The notes below the pieces were generated by a model. That model made no database searches. It was not told the origin of the DNA and saw only the letters and a program-made list of their open reading frames with translations. This document shows, one piece after another, positions 2,797-7,927 of a DNA stretch of 64,000 nt (position 1 is the first letter of the stretch; every line of letters begins with the position of its first letter). The translations under genes and the position numbers were made by a program. The stretch comes from Gelidibacter gilvus (GTDB taxonomy: Bacteria; Bacteroidota; Bacteroidia; Flavobacteriales; Flavobacteriaceae): NCBI RefSeq assembly GCF_004115975.1, contig NZ_SDDZ01000003.1, forward strand, positions 62,001 through 126,000. The letters are read 5' to 3'.

Positions 2797-3001
2797 ACTT
2801 TAGAATGCTATGTTGGGACTCAATCGGATTAAGATGATTTAAGTAATGACAGCGTTGGATTGGTAAGTGAGCATGACAACTGCGATTTACGAAAGGAAAA
2901 TTCATTAGTGAAAACTATAATTCATTAGCGGGAGAAGCTTTAATCACTCAAAATTTTAGTTGGATTACAGCGCATCTCATTATGTTATTACAAACGACTA
3001 A

Positions 3002-6000
3002 ATGAACTACGACCATTTAAAAATATCAAATCAGCAGGCGGAAGAGATCCTCTTCAAATTGTTCCATATACAGGGAAAGGCAACAGCACTTCCTGGCGAA
3101 TTGGATTTTAATTTTAGAATTAAAGTTGATAATGAAATTGGCTATATTCTGAAAATTTCACGTCCCAACGAAAATGAAAACTATCTCGATTTTCAACAGC
3201 AACTTTTACAGTTCGTTGCAGATCATGGTAAAAATATTATCGCGCCGAAAGTCATCACTGATATTAATGGAAACGTCATTTCAAAAATCACTGATGATTT
3301 TGGAAAGGAACGCCAGGTGCGATTATTGAGTTGGGTTTCTGGACGTGTTTGGAGTGGTGTGAATCCACAATTAGACGATTTGCGCTATAGTTTAGGTGAG
3401 CAATGTGGGTTACTTACGCAAGCTTTGCAAGGGTTTGACCATCCAGAAGCCCATCGTAAATTTGATTGGGACGTAGCACAATCACTTTGGACAAAAGCCC
3501 ATGTCGAATTATTCAATGATAATGAGAAAAGCATCGTCAAATACTTTCAAAATCTATTCGAAAATTCCCAAACCACCTACTCAACTTTAAGAAAAGGAGT
3601 CGTTCATAATGATGCCAACGATAATAATGTGATCGTCTCTTCCGATTTAGTTCATCCTAAAGTTGAAGCGGTCATCGATTATGGCGACGCTGTTTATACC
3701 CAAATTATTAATGATATCGCCGTTGCCTGTGCCTACGCCATAATGAATCATAACGATCCTTTGGAAGCGTCCTTGCCGATTGTGGAAGGTTATAATTCCT
3801 CCTTTAAATTGCAAGAGGAAGAATTAGCGCATTTATATGATGCTATTGCCATGCGACTGGTGATTTCAGTGACGAAATCTGCCATCAATAAAATTGCAGA
3901 ACCGGATAACGCATACCTTTTAATCAGTGAAAAACCGGCTTGGGAAGTTCTTAGAAAATGGCGACATGTAAGTGCAGATTTTGCACATTTTAGTTTTAGA
4001 GATGTCTGTGGTTTCGAGGCGCATCCTAAATCGAAGTCATTTAAAGATTGGGCTGAAAAACAAAGTTTTGAACTTAACGACTTATTTCCAACTATTGACA
4101 AACAAGACCTACATCACATAGATTTAAGTGTATCGAGTAAGTGGATTGGGCACCAAGAAGAATTTAATGATTTAGATGTTTTTCAATTTCAAATTGATCA
4201 ATTTCAAAAGAAACATCCTGAAAAAATTATCGCTGGTGGTTATTTAGAACCTCGGGCTTTATATACGTCGGATGCTTATGATAAAATAGGAAATTCCGGA
4301 AAGGAAAGTAGAACCATTCATTTAGGTGTGGACTTTTGGTTGCCAAGCGGTACGGCTGTTCATGCATTATTTGATGGGGAAGTGGTGATTGCTGTAAACG
4401 ACGCTGGTAATAAAGAATACGGGGGATTGGTAGTTTTAAAGCACAAAACTGATGGTTTTAATTTCTACACACTTTATGGGCATTTATCGGCTGAAAGCGC
4501 TATTAGACCTAGCGTAGGTGATCGTATTAAAACAGGCGAAAAAATTGGAGAGTTAGGCAATTCAACTGAAAATGGTAATTGGGTGCCACATCTTCATTTT
4601 CAAATCATGTTATCACTTTTAGATTATAAAACTGATTTCCCTGGGGTGGCTTATTATAATCAAATAGACGTATGGAAAAGGATCTGTCCCAATCCTAATC
4701 TGTTATTTAAATCCGAAGCACTTCAAAAAACCGGTACTGTTCCCAACGCCGATTTAATCCATTACAGAAAACAACATTTGGGCAAAAGTTTAAGCCTTCA
4801 GTATAATGAACCCATCAAGATGGTTCGCGGTGCGGGTCAATATCTAATGGATCAATACGGACGTAAATATTTGGACACGGTCAATAACGTCGCCCATGTA
4901 GGTCATGAAAATTATGCTGTGGTCAAGGCTGGGCAAGAACAAATGGCTTTGATCAATACCAATTCGCGCTATCTTCACGACAATATCAACGACTTGGCAC
5001 AAGAACTTATTGAAACCTTGCCGCCAGAATTAAGCGTGTTGCATTTTGTCAATTCGGGTAGTGAAGCCAACGAGTTGGCCATCAGAATGGTCAAAGCGGC
5101 CACCGGCGAACGCGATATTATAGCCAGCGAAGTAGGTTATCATGGCAATAGTAATATGTGCATCGATATCAGTTCGTATAAATTTGATGGAAAGGGCGGC
5201 ACTGGAGCGCCTGAACACACCCATGTTTTCCCATTACCAGATGCGTTTAGAGGGAAATATAGAAGCAAGGATAGCGCAGAAAAATATGCAGAAGAGGTGC
5301 AAAAGCAAATTGATGTTGTCCATAAAAAAGGACGTGGTGTTGGTGCATTTATCATTGAACCTATTATCAGCTGTGGCGGACAAGTTGAGTTGCCAGAAGG
5401 TTTTTTAGCCAAAGCATATGAAAAAGTGAGAGCCGCTGGCGGGCTTTGTATTTCTGATGAAGTCCAAACAGGATGCGGCAGAATGGGGAAAACATTTTGG
5501 GGATTTCAATTACATGATGTTGTACCGGATATTGTCACCATTGGCAAGCCCTTAGGAAACGGTCATCCCGTTGCTGCGGTGGCTTGTACACGTGAGATTG
5601 CCGATAAGTTTGCCAATGGGATGGAATATTTCAACACTTTTGGCGGGAATCCAGTCTCCTGTGCGATTGGCGCAGAGGTGATCCGCACAGTAAAGCGCGA
5701 GAACTTACAAGAAAATGCCTTGAAAATTGGAACATTCTTAAAAGAGGAACTCCATAAATTGGCAAAAGAGTTTCCAATTATAGGAGATGTTCGCGGACAG
5801 GGCCTGTTTCTGGGGATTGAATTAGTAGATGCCGAAATGAATCCGTTGGCAGCCCAAACCGATTATTTAGCAGATAGAATGAAAGACCACGGTATTTTAA
5901 TGAGTACCGATGGTCCAGATCATAATGTATTAAAAATTAAACCTCCAATTATTTTTACGAAAGCAAACGCCGAAGAATTGCTCTTTTATTTAAGAAAAAT

Positions 6001-6028
6001 TATGGCGGAAGATTTCATGCAATTTTAA
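3002..6028 (+). CDS. Three-domain fusion: APH-type kinase, M23 metallopeptidase, class III aminotransferase/phospho-lyase
   Basis: A 1008-residue protein with three enzyme domains in one frame. Residues 1-345 are an aminoglycoside-phosphotransferase-fold kinase with the catalytic loop His202-x-Asp204...Asn209 and a metal-binding Asp226. Residues about 410-560 are an M23/LytM zinc peptidase with the full ligand set (His440...Asp444 and His530-Leu-His532). Residues about 585-1008 are a class III PLP enzyme with Schiff-base Lys849 in IGKPLGNGHP. The C-terminal part resembles AGXT2L-type phospho-lyases (ethanolamine phosphate, 5-phosphohydroxylysine). The kinase resembles hydroxylysine/choline-type kinases, so phosphorylation followed by phospho-elimination is a sensible inference. 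There is no signal peptide although M23 domains normally cut periplasmic peptides. An aminopeptidase gene follows 129 bases later. Substrates are not determined. Confidence 0.88.
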   Translation: MNYDHLKISNQQAEEILFKLFHIQGKATALPGELDFNFRIKVDNEIGYILKISRPNENENYLDFQQQLLQFVADHGKNIIAPKVITDINGNVISKITDDFGKERQVRLLSWVSGRVWSGVNPQLDDLRYSLGEQCGLLTQALQGFDHPEAHRKFDWDVAQSLWTKAHVELFNDNEKSIVKYFQNLFENSQTTYSTLRKGVVHNDANDNNVIVSSDLVHPKVEAVIDYGDAVYTQIINDIAVACAYAIMNHNDPLEASLPIVEGYNSSFKLQEEELAHLYDAIAMRLVISVTKSAINKIAEPDNAYLLISEKPAWEVLRKWRHVSADFAHFSFRDVCGFEAHPKSKSFKDWAEKQSFELNDLFPTIDKQDLHHIDLSVSSKWIGHQEEFNDLDVFQFQIDQFQKKHPEKIIAGGYLEPRALYTSDAYDKIGNSGKESRTIHLGVDFWLPSGTAVHALFDGEVVIAVNDAGNKEYGGLVVLKHKTDGFNFYTLYGHLSAESAIRPSVGDRIKTGEKIGELGNSTENGNWVPHLHFQIMLSLLDYKTDFPGVAYYNQIDVWKRICPNPNLLFKSEALQKTGTVPNADLIHYRKQHLGKSLSLQYNEPIKMVRGAGQYLMDQYGRKYLDTVNNVAHVGHENYAVVKAGQEQMALINTNSRYLHDNINDLAQELIETLPPELSVLHFVNSGSEANELAIRMVKAATGERDIIASEVGYHGNSNMCIDISSYKFDGKGGTGAPEHTHVFPLPDAFRGKYRSKDSAEKYAEEVQKQIDVVHKKGRGVGAFIIEPIISCGGQVELPEGFLAKAYEKVRAAGGLCISDEVQTGCGRMGKTFWGFQLHDVVPDIVTIGKPLGNGHPVAAVACTREIADKFANGMEYFNTFGGNPVSCAIGAEVIRTVKRENLQENALKIGTFLKEELHKLAKEFPIIGDVRGQGLFLGIELVDAEMNPLAAQTDYLADRMKDHGILMSTDGPDHNVLKIKPPIIFTKANAEELLFYLRKIMAEDFMQF

Positions 6029-6157: not shown

Positions 6158-7927
6158 ATGACAGCCAAAGAAAAAGTAGCTTCCCTCAGATCGGAAATGA
6201 AGAAAAACGCTATAGACGCCTTCATCATCTATTCCGCCGATCCGCATATGGGAGAATATCTCCCAGCAGAATGGCAAGAACGAACTTGGTTGTCTGGGTT
6301 TACTGGGTCCGCTGGATTTGTGGTGGTGACCGCGGATAAAGCCGGACTATGGACCGATGGACGTTACTTTACACAGGCTCCAAAAGAGTTGAAAGGTTCT
6401 GGGATTGACTTGTTTAAGGATGGGATGGAAGGTACGCCAAATTATATTGATTGGATTATTTCTGAAACTGAGGAAAGTGCGACTATTGCGGTTAGCGCCT
6501 TGGTCACTTCTCATGCCAATTGGAAGGATTTGGATCAAAAACTAACCAAATCCAAACGCCATCTTAAGGATTTGCCACTACTCAATAATGTGTGGACCAA
6601 CCGTCCTGCACCAAGTAAAAACACTGTTTTTATCCATCCGATTGAACGTGCAGGCCAATCTGTAGCCGATAAGCTTTCGGCGATTCGTGAAAAGATGGCT
6701 TCAGAAGGCGCCACCATGCATATTATTGCGAGCTTGGATGATGTGGCTTGGACTCTAAATCTAAGAGGGAGTGACGTCAAATGCAACCCGGTGTTTTTAG
6801 GTTATATCATTTTGACCATGCAAGAATGCTTTCTTTTTGTGGATAAGGATAAAGTGAGTGAAGAAACCGAAAATATCATCCATAAATCGGGCGTTGGTGT
6901 TAAGCCTTATGGTCAATTTTTTGAATACCTCGCCAACGTGCAAAAGGCATCCATTTTAGTGGCGCCTAATAGTAATCACGCTATTTTTGAAGCCGTCCAA
7001 AAGGGCAACGACATCATAGAGCAACCTGTACCTGGAAACTTAATGAAGGCCATCAAGAATGACGCAGAGCAGAAGGGATTTGAAACCGTAATGGTTCGCG
7101 ATGGAGTGGCGATGGTGAAATTCTTACACTGGCTGACGCACGCCGTAGGAAAAGAAGAAATGGATGAATATAGTATTGGTGAAAAATTACACCAATTCCG
7201 GGCGGAAGGAAAAAATTTTATAGGCAATAGTTTTGATAGTATTGTGGGTTATAAAGCGAATGGTGCGATTATGCATTATTCAGCCAAACCAGAAGGAAGT
7301 GCTAAAGTGACCAAGGATGGCAGTATTTTGGTGGATTCCGGAGGTCAATATTTAGAGGGTACCACTGATATTACCCGTACGTTTCCTTTAGGTGACGTTT
7401 CCGACGAATTCAAATATGATGCGACAAGGGCTCTGCAAGGCTTGATCCAGTTGTCCATTGCAAAGTTTCCAAAAGGCACCAAAGGCGTTCAACTTGATGC
7501 TTTGGCCAGAATGCCGTTATGGAAAGAAGGAAAAGATTATAATCATGGTACCGGGCATGGTGTAGGAAGCTTTTTGAATGTGCACGAAGGACCACAGAGC
7601 ATCCGTAAAGAAATTAATCCTGTAGAATTGCAAGCCGGAATGGTCATGTCCAATGAACCTGGCTATTATTTAGAAGACAATTATGGGATTCGTCATGAGA
7701 ATCTCATCCTGGTCAAAACCTGGAAAAAAACGGAGTGGAATACGTTTTATGAATTTGAAACCTTAACCTTATGTCCTTTTTTTAAAAGTATTATGGTGAA
7801 GGATCTGCTTTCCCAAGAAGAAGTTGATTGGATTAATACCTACCACAAAATGGTTCGGGAAAAGCTGGCACCGCATTTAGAAGGAGAAGTTAAGGAATGG
7901 TTTGAGGAAATGGTTTCCCCGTTATAA
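6158..7927 (+). CDS. Xaa-Pro aminopeptidase, M24 family (AMPP type)
   Basis: A 589-residue, three-part aminopeptidase P of the long eukaryote/Bacteroidota type: two creatinase-like N-terminal domains (about 1-155 and 160-310) and a C-terminal pita-bread domain. The dinuclear metal ligands are all present: Asp393, Asp404, His467, Glu500 and Glu514. No signal peptide, so cytoplasmic. It releases an N-terminal residue followed by proline. It sits on the same strand as the kinase/M23/phospho-lyase fusion, 129 bases downstream, so the two may be co-transcribed. A TAACTTTC sequence about 30 bases upstream is a near match to a -7 box and could give separate expression. Confidence 0.93.
   Translation: MTAKEKVASLRSEMKKNAIDAFIIYSADPHMGEYLPAEWQERTWLSGFTGSAGFVVVTADKAGLWTDGRYFTQAPKELKGSGIDLFKDGMEGTPNYIDWIISETEESATIAVSALVTSHANWKDLDQKLTKSKRHLKDLPLLNNVWTNRPAPSKNTVFIHPIERAGQSVADKLSAIREKMASEGATMHIIASLDDVAWTLNLRGSDVKCNPVFLGYIILTMQECFLFVDKDKVSEETENIIHKSGVGVKPYGQFFEYLANVQKASILVAPNSNHAIFEAVQKGNDIIEQPVPGNLMKAIKNDAEQKGFETVMVRDGVAMVKFLHWLTHAVGKEEMDEYSIGEKLHQFRAEGKNFIGNSFDSIVGYKANGAIMHYSAKPEGSAKVTKDGSILVDSGGQYLEGTTDITRTFPLGDVSDEFKYDATRALQGLIQLSIAKFPKGTKGVQLDALARMPLWKEGKDYNHGTGHGVGSFLNVHEGPQSIRKEINPVELQAGMVMSNEPGYYLEDNYGIRHENLILVKTWKKTEWNTFYEFETLTLCPFFKSIMVKDLLSQEEVDWINTYHKMVREKLAPHLEGEVKEWFEEMVSPL

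What the first reader, a model, noticed from the sequence alone, without database searches (positions are those of the whole stretch)
3002..6028. Kinase, zinc peptidase and phospho-lyase fused in one 1008-residue protein
Three complete catalytic sites are present in one frame: APH-type (His202/Asp204/Asn209/Asp226), M23 (His440, Asp444, His530-x-His532) and PLP-type (Lys849). In animals, hydroxylysine kinase and the AGXT2L2 phospho-lyase act in sequence (known), so the outer domains suggest phosphorylation then phosphate elimination of an amino alcohol such as hydroxylysine or ethanolamine. The M23 domain in the middle normally cuts glycine-containing peptides outside the cytoplasm, yet no signal peptide is seen. 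One idea: the peptidase releases modified amino acids, or recognises wall-derived peptides, that the other two domains then degrade. The Xaa-Pro aminopeptidase downstream fits a peptide-catabolism theme.
Basis: partly seen in the sequence, partly recalled or inferred. Interest (0 to 1): 0.75.

Follow-up and report, generated by a model that had tools for sequence, protein, structure and literature searches.

The report
Three-enzyme fusion, probably for hydroxylysine
One bacterial protein joins a kinase, a zinc peptidase and a phosphate-removing lyase; some relatives keep the same gene beside genes that fit the breakdown of collagen's sugar-bearing and hydroxylated amino acids, so it probably lets bacteria use hydroxylysine.

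Summary
The ORF, the three domains and the named active-site residues are real. The fusion is not new as a family: it passes the full-length NCBIfam model NF004799/PRK06148, named only "hypothetical protein". I found it in 27 of 296 Bacteroidota genomes and in contigs labelled as eight other phyla. M23 zinc and catalytic residues are identical in 115 of 115 aligned fusions, so the middle domain looks kept as an enzyme, yet it is separable: two-domain forms lack it, and the same M23 subfamily outside the fusion was seen in 0 of 27 fusion genomes but 5 of 7 two-domain genomes. Gene context points to collagen 5-hydroxylysine: a YgjK-type alpha-glucosidase, beta-galactosidases, galactokinase, hydroxyproline catabolism or Xaa-Pro aminopeptidase genes lie within 5 kb in 25 of 99 fusion loci and 0 of 30 controls. 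The window keeps a 34-codon relic of that glucosidase just upstream. Most likely: kinase makes 5-phosphohydroxylysine, lyase yields 2-aminoadipate semialdehyde, and the M23 domain frees hydroxylysine from small peptides (least certain). No assay or structure model was available.

The parts
3002..6028 (+). APH-type kinase / M23 zinc peptidase / class-III PLP phospho-lyase fusion, 1008 aa (PRK06148 family)
3080..3754 (+). APH-type kinase domain (Pfam span, residues 27-251; H202, D204, N209, D226)
4316..4609 (+). M23 core (Pfam span, residues 439-536; H440, D444, H494, H530, H532); the subfamily region is about residues 350-580
4811..6001 (+). Aminotran_3 / phospho-lyase domain (residues 604-1000; PLP lysine K849)
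2892..2993 (+). 34-codon relic of the C-terminus of the operon alpha-glucosidase; the stop of its frame overlaps the fusion's start codon
   Evidence: 56-67% identity to five operon glucosidases; best E 5e-8 over the whole window; 0 of 200 shuffled queries reached 1e-3 in the two flanking regions searched
6158..7927 (+). Neighbouring M24 (APP-type) Xaa-Pro aminopeptidase, 130 bp downstream; association with the fusion is loose

Best explanation
A cytosolic, single-polypeptide 5-hydroxylysine catabolic enzyme. Outside the cytoplasm, in some relatives, a lipoprotein-like YgjK-type alpha-glucosidase and a beta-galactosidase strip Glc-alpha-1,2-Gal from collagen hydroxylysine (inferred from family and N-termini). 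The N-terminal APH domain phosphorylates the 5-hydroxyl with a nucleoside triphosphate; the C-terminal PLP domain eliminates phosphate and ammonia to give 2-aminoadipate-6-semialdehyde (inferred from homology and from the known animal pathway, recalled). The M23 domain is a working cytosolic zinc peptidase that probably releases hydroxylysine from small, glycine-containing peptides before phosphorylation (inferred; least certain). Shown by sequence: domains, active residues, lack of an export signal, gene context, relic. Not shown: any activity. My estimates: hydroxylysine as substrate about 0.75; M23 as an active peptidase on such peptides about 0.4.
For: (1) Operons: alpha-glucosidase, fusion and GH2 beta-galactosidase within 1-88 bp of each other in L069, L089, L094; L091 adds galactokinase, aldose 1-epimerase, a sodium:solute symporter, a Pro_racemase-family gene and an ornithine-cyclodeaminase-family gene. 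(2) The operon glucosidase's nearest solved structure is E. coli YgjK, 2e-71. (3) Different beta-galactosidase families fill the same slot: GH2, GH42 (L042-L044; a GH42-like gene on S. meliloti pSymB, L058/L059), GH1 (L157). (4) In Lutimonas (L103) the fusion lies between a trans-3-hydroxyproline-dehydratase-like gene (381 bits, below its cut-off of 540) with a pyrroline-2-carboxylate reductase (347, cut-off 322), and a 4-hydroxyproline epimerase (576, cut-off 376) with D-amino-acid-dehydrogenase-like, ALDH and DHDPS-family genes: candidates for all three hydroxylated amino acids of collagen. (5) One of three gene groups (sugar, hydroxyproline, Xaa-Pro aminopeptidase) lies within 5 kb in 25 of 99 fusion loci and 0 of 30 control loci (Fisher 0.001; singly 14 of 99, p 0.04; 10 of 99, p 0.12; 6 of 99, p 0.33). 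(6) The window keeps a relic of the glucosidase directly upstream. (7) Five rhizobial copies (Shinella x3, Phyllobacterium, Pararhizobium) have a divergent Lrp/AsnC regulator and a solute- or amino-acid-binding transporter protein close by. (8) M23 zinc and catalytic residues invariant in 115 of 115.
Against: 74 of 99 fusion loci have none of the three gene groups within 5 kb (many contigs are short). The window genome has no Pro_racemase, no further match to the operon glucosidase, and its GH2 matches lie on other contigs at 30-42% identity. No M9 collagenase link: 0 of 27 fusion genomes over the cut-off, 1 of 296 overall; weak sub-cut-off matches in 5 of 27 and 26 of 296. The genome-level Pro_racemase association (22 of 27 vs 51 of 269 strong matches) is not seen inside the window's family (4 of 6 vs 12 of 24, p 0.66). 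The best-matching solved lyase acts on phosphoethanolamine; the hydroxylysine-specific animal enzymes were not available for comparison. For the M23 step: forms without it are scattered on the tree, and 2 of 7 two-domain genomes show no M23 of this subfamily.
Confidence: 0.62

Rival explanations
1. Amino-alcohol catabolism: the kinase and lyase act on ethanolamine or 1-amino-2-propanol, giving acetaldehyde or propionaldehyde.
For: Nearest solved structures are ethanolamine-phosphate phospho-lyase (6tor) and phospholyase 5g4i. An SDR gene in S. meliloti and ALDH-like genes in L162 and L163 lie next to the fusion. An amino-alcohol kinase plus phospho-lyase route in Pseudomonas/Erwinia is known from old enzymology (recalled).
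Against: Recurrent neighbours are glycosidases, galactokinase and hydroxyproline genes; no ethanolamine genes were noticed, though none were searched for specifically. Split kinase+lyase pairs sit in other contexts and may be the amino-alcohol branch.
Confidence: 0.17
2. The M23 domain is not a peptidase here: it is a structural or ligand-sensing module that holds or regulates the other two enzymes.
For: A paralogous group (L038-L040, 963-967 aa; L038 is closest to PRK06149, 911 bits, cut-off 973) keeps the middle region but has lost the M23 ligands; two-domain and split forms exist without it.
Against: Five zinc/catalytic residues identical in 115 of 115 fusions; the same subfamily occurs outside the fusion in 60 of 296 genomes, 59 of them in short frames of 196-297 codons, which a mere spacer would not need.
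Confidence: 0.2
3. The M23 domain acts on D-amino-acid or cell-wall-derived peptides, and the fusion salvages such peptides.
For: Stand-alone members in L173, L186-L188 sit with an ornithine-racemase-like gene and a sodium:solute symporter, in L173 and L187 also with M20 peptidase and alanine racemase genes; a fused copy in Shinella (L065) lies near D-aminopeptidase, M55 and P1/S58 peptidase genes; S58 genes also lie by the stand-alone M23 in L056 and L180.
Against: That context belongs mostly to the stand-alone form; fused copies more often sit with collagen-type genes.
Confidence: 0.15
4. The fusion is an assembly or frameshift artefact joining neighbouring genes.
For: None found.
Against: Same order and similar length in 27 Bacteroidota genomes and in named contigs of other phyla; a curated full-length model exists.
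Confidence: 0.01

Closest known systems
NCBIfam NF004799 / PRK06148 (subfamily, 'hypothetical protein')
   Same: Full-length match over all three domains above the cut-off.
   Different: The database entry gives no function; the gene context, substrate proposal and M23 pattern are what is added here.
Animal hydroxylysine kinase (HYKK/AGPHD1) plus 5-phosphohydroxylysine phospho-lyase (PHYKPL/AGXT2L2); Veiga-da-Cunha et al. 2012, seen only as a reference entry in PMC8154272
   Same: Same two enzyme families acting in sequence (pathway and family membership of the animal proteins: recalled).
   Different: Two separate animal proteins; here one polypeptide with an M23 domain between them. I recall that paper mentioning bacterial fusions but could not open it. 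Direct sequence comparison was not possible.
Ethanolamine-phosphate phospho-lyase (6tor) and phospholyase 5g4i
   Same: Closest solved structures of the lyase domain.
   Different: A different substrate is proposed here; the match of those chains covers the lyase domain only (residues 583-1001 and 583-999).
Lysostaphin/LytM-type M23 peptidases
   Same: HxxxD, third His and HxH; LytM at 7e-9.
   Different: No export signal; subfamily invariants (E416, R418, Y421, R437, N524, mostly W527) and an N-G-x-W/Y stretch before H530.
NF004800 / PRK06149 (972 aa)
   Same: Same overall layout.
   Different: The window scores 686 against a cut-off of 973. L038, a relative nearest to that model (911 bits, also below the cut-off), has lost the M23 ligands.

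Membership tests
NF004799/PRK06148 | Full-length score above curated cut-off (1128) | tested here: met
   1156 bits, profile 10-1010 of 1015
Peptidase family M23 | Zinc ligands HxxxD and HxH plus catalytic His | tested here: met
   H440, D444, H494, H530, H532; invariant in 115 of 115
Peptidase family M23 | Exported to periplasm or cell surface (typical, not defining) | tested here: not met
   No hydrophobic N-terminus in the window protein; 2 of 108 fusions and 0 of 30 stand-alone forms exceed the 1.9 hydropathy threshold
Peptidase family M23 | Peptide bond cleavage | not testable with these tools
   No assay
Class-III PLP phospho-lyases (ETNPPL/PHYKPL type) | Class-III PLP family with PLP lysine, closest to phospho-lyases | tested here: met
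   K849; 6tor 1.8e-132 and 5g4i 7.7e-94 are the top two of 215 matched PDB sequences, 60 of which were shown
Class-III PLP phospho-lyases (ETNPPL/PHYKPL type) | Activity on phosphohydroxylysine rather than phosphoethanolamine | not testable with these tools
   No assay; no PHYKPL sequence was at hand
Hydroxylysine kinase (APH superfamily) | APH catalytic residues | tested here: met
   K51, H202, D204, N209, D226; in 115 rows KHDND 100, KYDND 12, KFDND 1, two rows truncated there
Hydroxylysine kinase (APH superfamily) | Phosphorylates 5-hydroxylysine | not testable with these tools
   No assay; the kinase domain has no PDB match at E 0.01
NF004800/PRK06149 | Score above cut-off (973) | tested here: not met
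   686 bits

The most novel reading that the evidence does not exclude
A bacterial pathway for the collagen glycoside glucosyl-galactosyl-hydroxylysine in which one cytosolic polypeptide does peptide release, phosphorylation and phosphate elimination, with a cytosolic M23 subfamily (fused or free-standing) as a new kind of intracellular peptidase for hydroxylysine/glycine peptides.
Probability: 0.3. Interest if true: 0.8.

Novelty: new variant of a known kind. Interest (0 to 1): 0.62.

Why it matters
If right, it gives a function to a widespread unnamed family, links bacterial use of animal connective tissue to hydroxylysine and its sugars, and supplies a genetic test system (for example S. 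meliloti pSymB). It would also show M23 peptidases working inside cells, unusual for a family known for cutting cell walls outside them.

Tried and rejected
Assembly artefact: rejected. Secreted M23: rejected by hydropathy. M9 collagenase link: tested, absent. Generic amino-acid-catabolism confounder: the histidine ammonia-lyase family shows no association (19 of 27 vs 190 of 269). Pro_racemase co-occurrence as proof: downgraded because it is a between-family effect. Context of the stand-alone M23: no single theme over 30 loci. Neighbours such as RmuC, helicases, an OmpA-like protein, PNPase and a sigma factor were judged unrelated. Promoter-like and terminator-like sites were not clearly above shuffles.

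Limits of the counts: the reference genes were picked because they recurred in the same set, so its p-values are post hoc. Its 114 loci (108 three-domain, 6 two-domain) were thinned by 10 at 85% identity, leaving 99 three-domain loci; all 6 two-domain loci were counted, and the seventh (L036) was not in that set. The first gene calling missed fusions in GC-rich loci and was replaced; L085 fell out there although one search had shown Pro_racemase- and DAO-cluster genes beside its fusion. Flanks are short on many contigs. The 115-row census was not made non-redundant and holds truncated rows. 'Strong' Pro_racemase (73 genomes) was my own cut at about E 1e-80; the family cut-off itself gave 78 of 296. 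In one search at most 9 first-look candidates per genome were scored, so a second copy could have been missed; one of the 60 non-fusion matches (G033) lies in a 425-codon frame that I did not examine. Two-domain genomes are the seven I recognised in a capped list. Fisher and Poisson figures ignore phylogeny.

Literature: nothing on bacterial glucosyl-galactosyl-hydroxylysine or hydroxylysine kinase-lyase catabolism was seen in the listings (open-licence papers; several listings were capped). One search found PRK06148 in one paper, PMC8249566; the passage is a table label on a Mycoplasma lipoprotein and says nothing on function. Passages only were read of PMC8154272 and PMC8626586 (one search found none of its terms). 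No paper was read whole.
Full report
OBSERVATION. The 1008-aa ORF at window:3002-6028 is intact and holds APH, Peptidase_M23 and Aminotran_3 domains, all above Pfam's gathering scores. The gene is the only match over the family cut-off in its genome.

KNOWN FAMILY. NCBIfam already has a full-length model, NF004799/PRK06148, and the window passes it (1156 vs 1128 bits). In 296 Bacteroidota genomes I count 27 with the three-domain form (the same 27 stand out by frame length); 19 genomes are over that cut-off.

THE M23 DOMAIN LOOKS KEPT AS AN ENZYME. In 115 aligned three-domain proteins H440, D444, H494, H530 and H532 are identical in all; nine further positions (G412, E416, R418, Y421, R437, G474, H481, N524, W527) are kept together in 113. 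The nearest solved structures are LytM and relatives, at about 7e-9. By hydropathy neither the fusion (2 of 108 above threshold) nor the free-standing form (0 of 30) has an export signal.

BUT IT IS SEPARABLE. Seven of the 296 genomes have a two-domain kinase-lyase without M23. A model of this M23 subfamily gives exactly one match in each of 87 genomes: 27 fused and 60 outside a three-domain fusion (59 in frames of 196-297 codons). No genome showed both, and 5 of 7 two-domain genomes show the free form (Fisher 0.002 and 0.007, no phylogenetic correction). Three genomes (L038-L040) carry a second paralogue whose middle domain has lost the ligands; for L038, Pfam's M23 match is below its gathering score and the nearest model is PRK06149 (911 bits, cut-off 973). 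On a tree of the lyase domain (71 rows; quick method, 27 of 68 inner branches open) the three-domain label needs five changes, but well-supported branches force only one, and gain cannot be told from loss without a root. My reading: the M23 function is useful together with the kinase-lyase but can be supplied in trans or lost.

GENE CONTEXT POINTS TO COLLAGEN HYDROXYLYSINE. In L069, L089 and L094 an alpha-glucosidase, the fusion and a GH2 beta-galactosidase follow each other within 1-88 bp; the glycosidases have lipoprotein-like N-termini (my reading). The glucosidase belongs with YgjK (MGH1-like_GH and YgjK_N in Pfam; YgjK 2e-71 in the PDB). I recall, from no call, that YgjK's known product complex is Glc-alpha-1,2-Gal. 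That disaccharide sits on collagen hydroxylysine, and animals remove its glucose with a GH65 enzyme (PMC8626586, passages). The same slot holds GH42 in L042-L044 (two-domain fusions); an MGH1-like glycosidase plus a GH42-like gene and sugar and amino-acid ABC transporters on S. meliloti pSymB; and GH1 in L157. L091 adds galactokinase (TIGR00131 326 bits, cut-off 227), aldose 1-epimerase and a symporter. In Lutimonas (L103) the fusion is flanked by candidates for trans-3- and trans-4-hydroxyproline breakdown. The Pro_racemase family lies within 3.5 kb in 10 of the 112 loci. Counting all three groups within 5 kb: 25 of 99 fusion loci, 3 of 6 two-domain loci, 0 of 30 free-M23 control loci. Singly only the sugar group passes 0.05 against these controls (p 0.04; hydroxyproline 0.12, Xaa-Pro aminopeptidase 0.33). 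Against a rough genomic expectation of 0.4 in 99 loci, ten loci hold a Pro_racemase-family gene within 5 kb. Five rhizobial copies have a divergent Lrp/AsnC regulator and a binding-protein gene close by instead.

THE WINDOW ITSELF. Just upstream of the fusion, window:2892-2993 encodes 34 residues that are 56-67% identical to the C-terminus of five operon glucosidases, and those queries give no other hit in the whole window at E 1; the frame's stop overlaps the fusion's ATG. No other match to that glucosidase was found in the genome at E 0.001. I infer that an ancestor had the glucosidase-fusion arrangement and this lineage lost most of the glucosidase. The genome also has no Pro_racemase. Today's organism may use free or peptide-borne hydroxylysine.

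WHAT SPEAKS AGAINST. Most loci (74 of 99) show none of these neighbours; M9 collagenase shows no link; the genome-level Pro_racemase association is a between-family effect, although a control family shows none at all; the closest solved lyase acts on phosphoethanolamine. No structure model could be made.

VERDICT. Kinase plus lyase for 5-hydroxylysine: about 0.75. M23 as a cytosolic peptidase feeding them: about 0.4. The family is known, its function is not; the pathway reading, the relic and the fused-or-free pattern of the M23 subfamily are the new parts.

Noticed in passing
L038:4986-7889, L039:4983-7886, L040:4983-7874: Second paralogue (963-967 aa) with kinase and lyase residues kept but M23 zinc ligands lost; found in genomes that also hold the active three-domain form.
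   Followed up: partly
L173, L186, L187, L188: Free-standing M23 of this subfamily next to an ornithine-racemase-like gene and a sodium:solute symporter cluster (all four loci), plus M20 peptidase and alanine racemase genes (L173, L187); families were searched in L187 and in part L173, the rest is by clustering.
   Followed up: partly
L056, L180, L065: S58/P1-family peptidase genes near the M23: by the free-standing form in L056 and L180, by the fused form in L065; L056 also has a PALP-family (dehydratase-like) gene.
   Followed up: partly
L058, L059 (S. meliloti pSymB): LacI regulators, amino-acid ABC transporter, SDR, fusion, sugar ABC transporter, MGH1-like glycosidase and a GH42-like gene in one run: a candidate glycosyl-hydroxylysine uptake locus.
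   Followed up: partly
L132: A fusion copy in a Thorarchaeota MAG contig, placed among bacterial copies in the tree; gene transfer or misbinning.
   Followed up: no
L066, L067, L068: Adjacent separate kinase and lyase genes without M23, in other transporter/regulator contexts; possibly a different amino-alcohol substrate.
   Followed up: no
L189, L190 (window genome, contig C39): Two neighbouring GH2 genes, 41-42% identical to the operon beta-galactosidase of L089.
   Followed up: no
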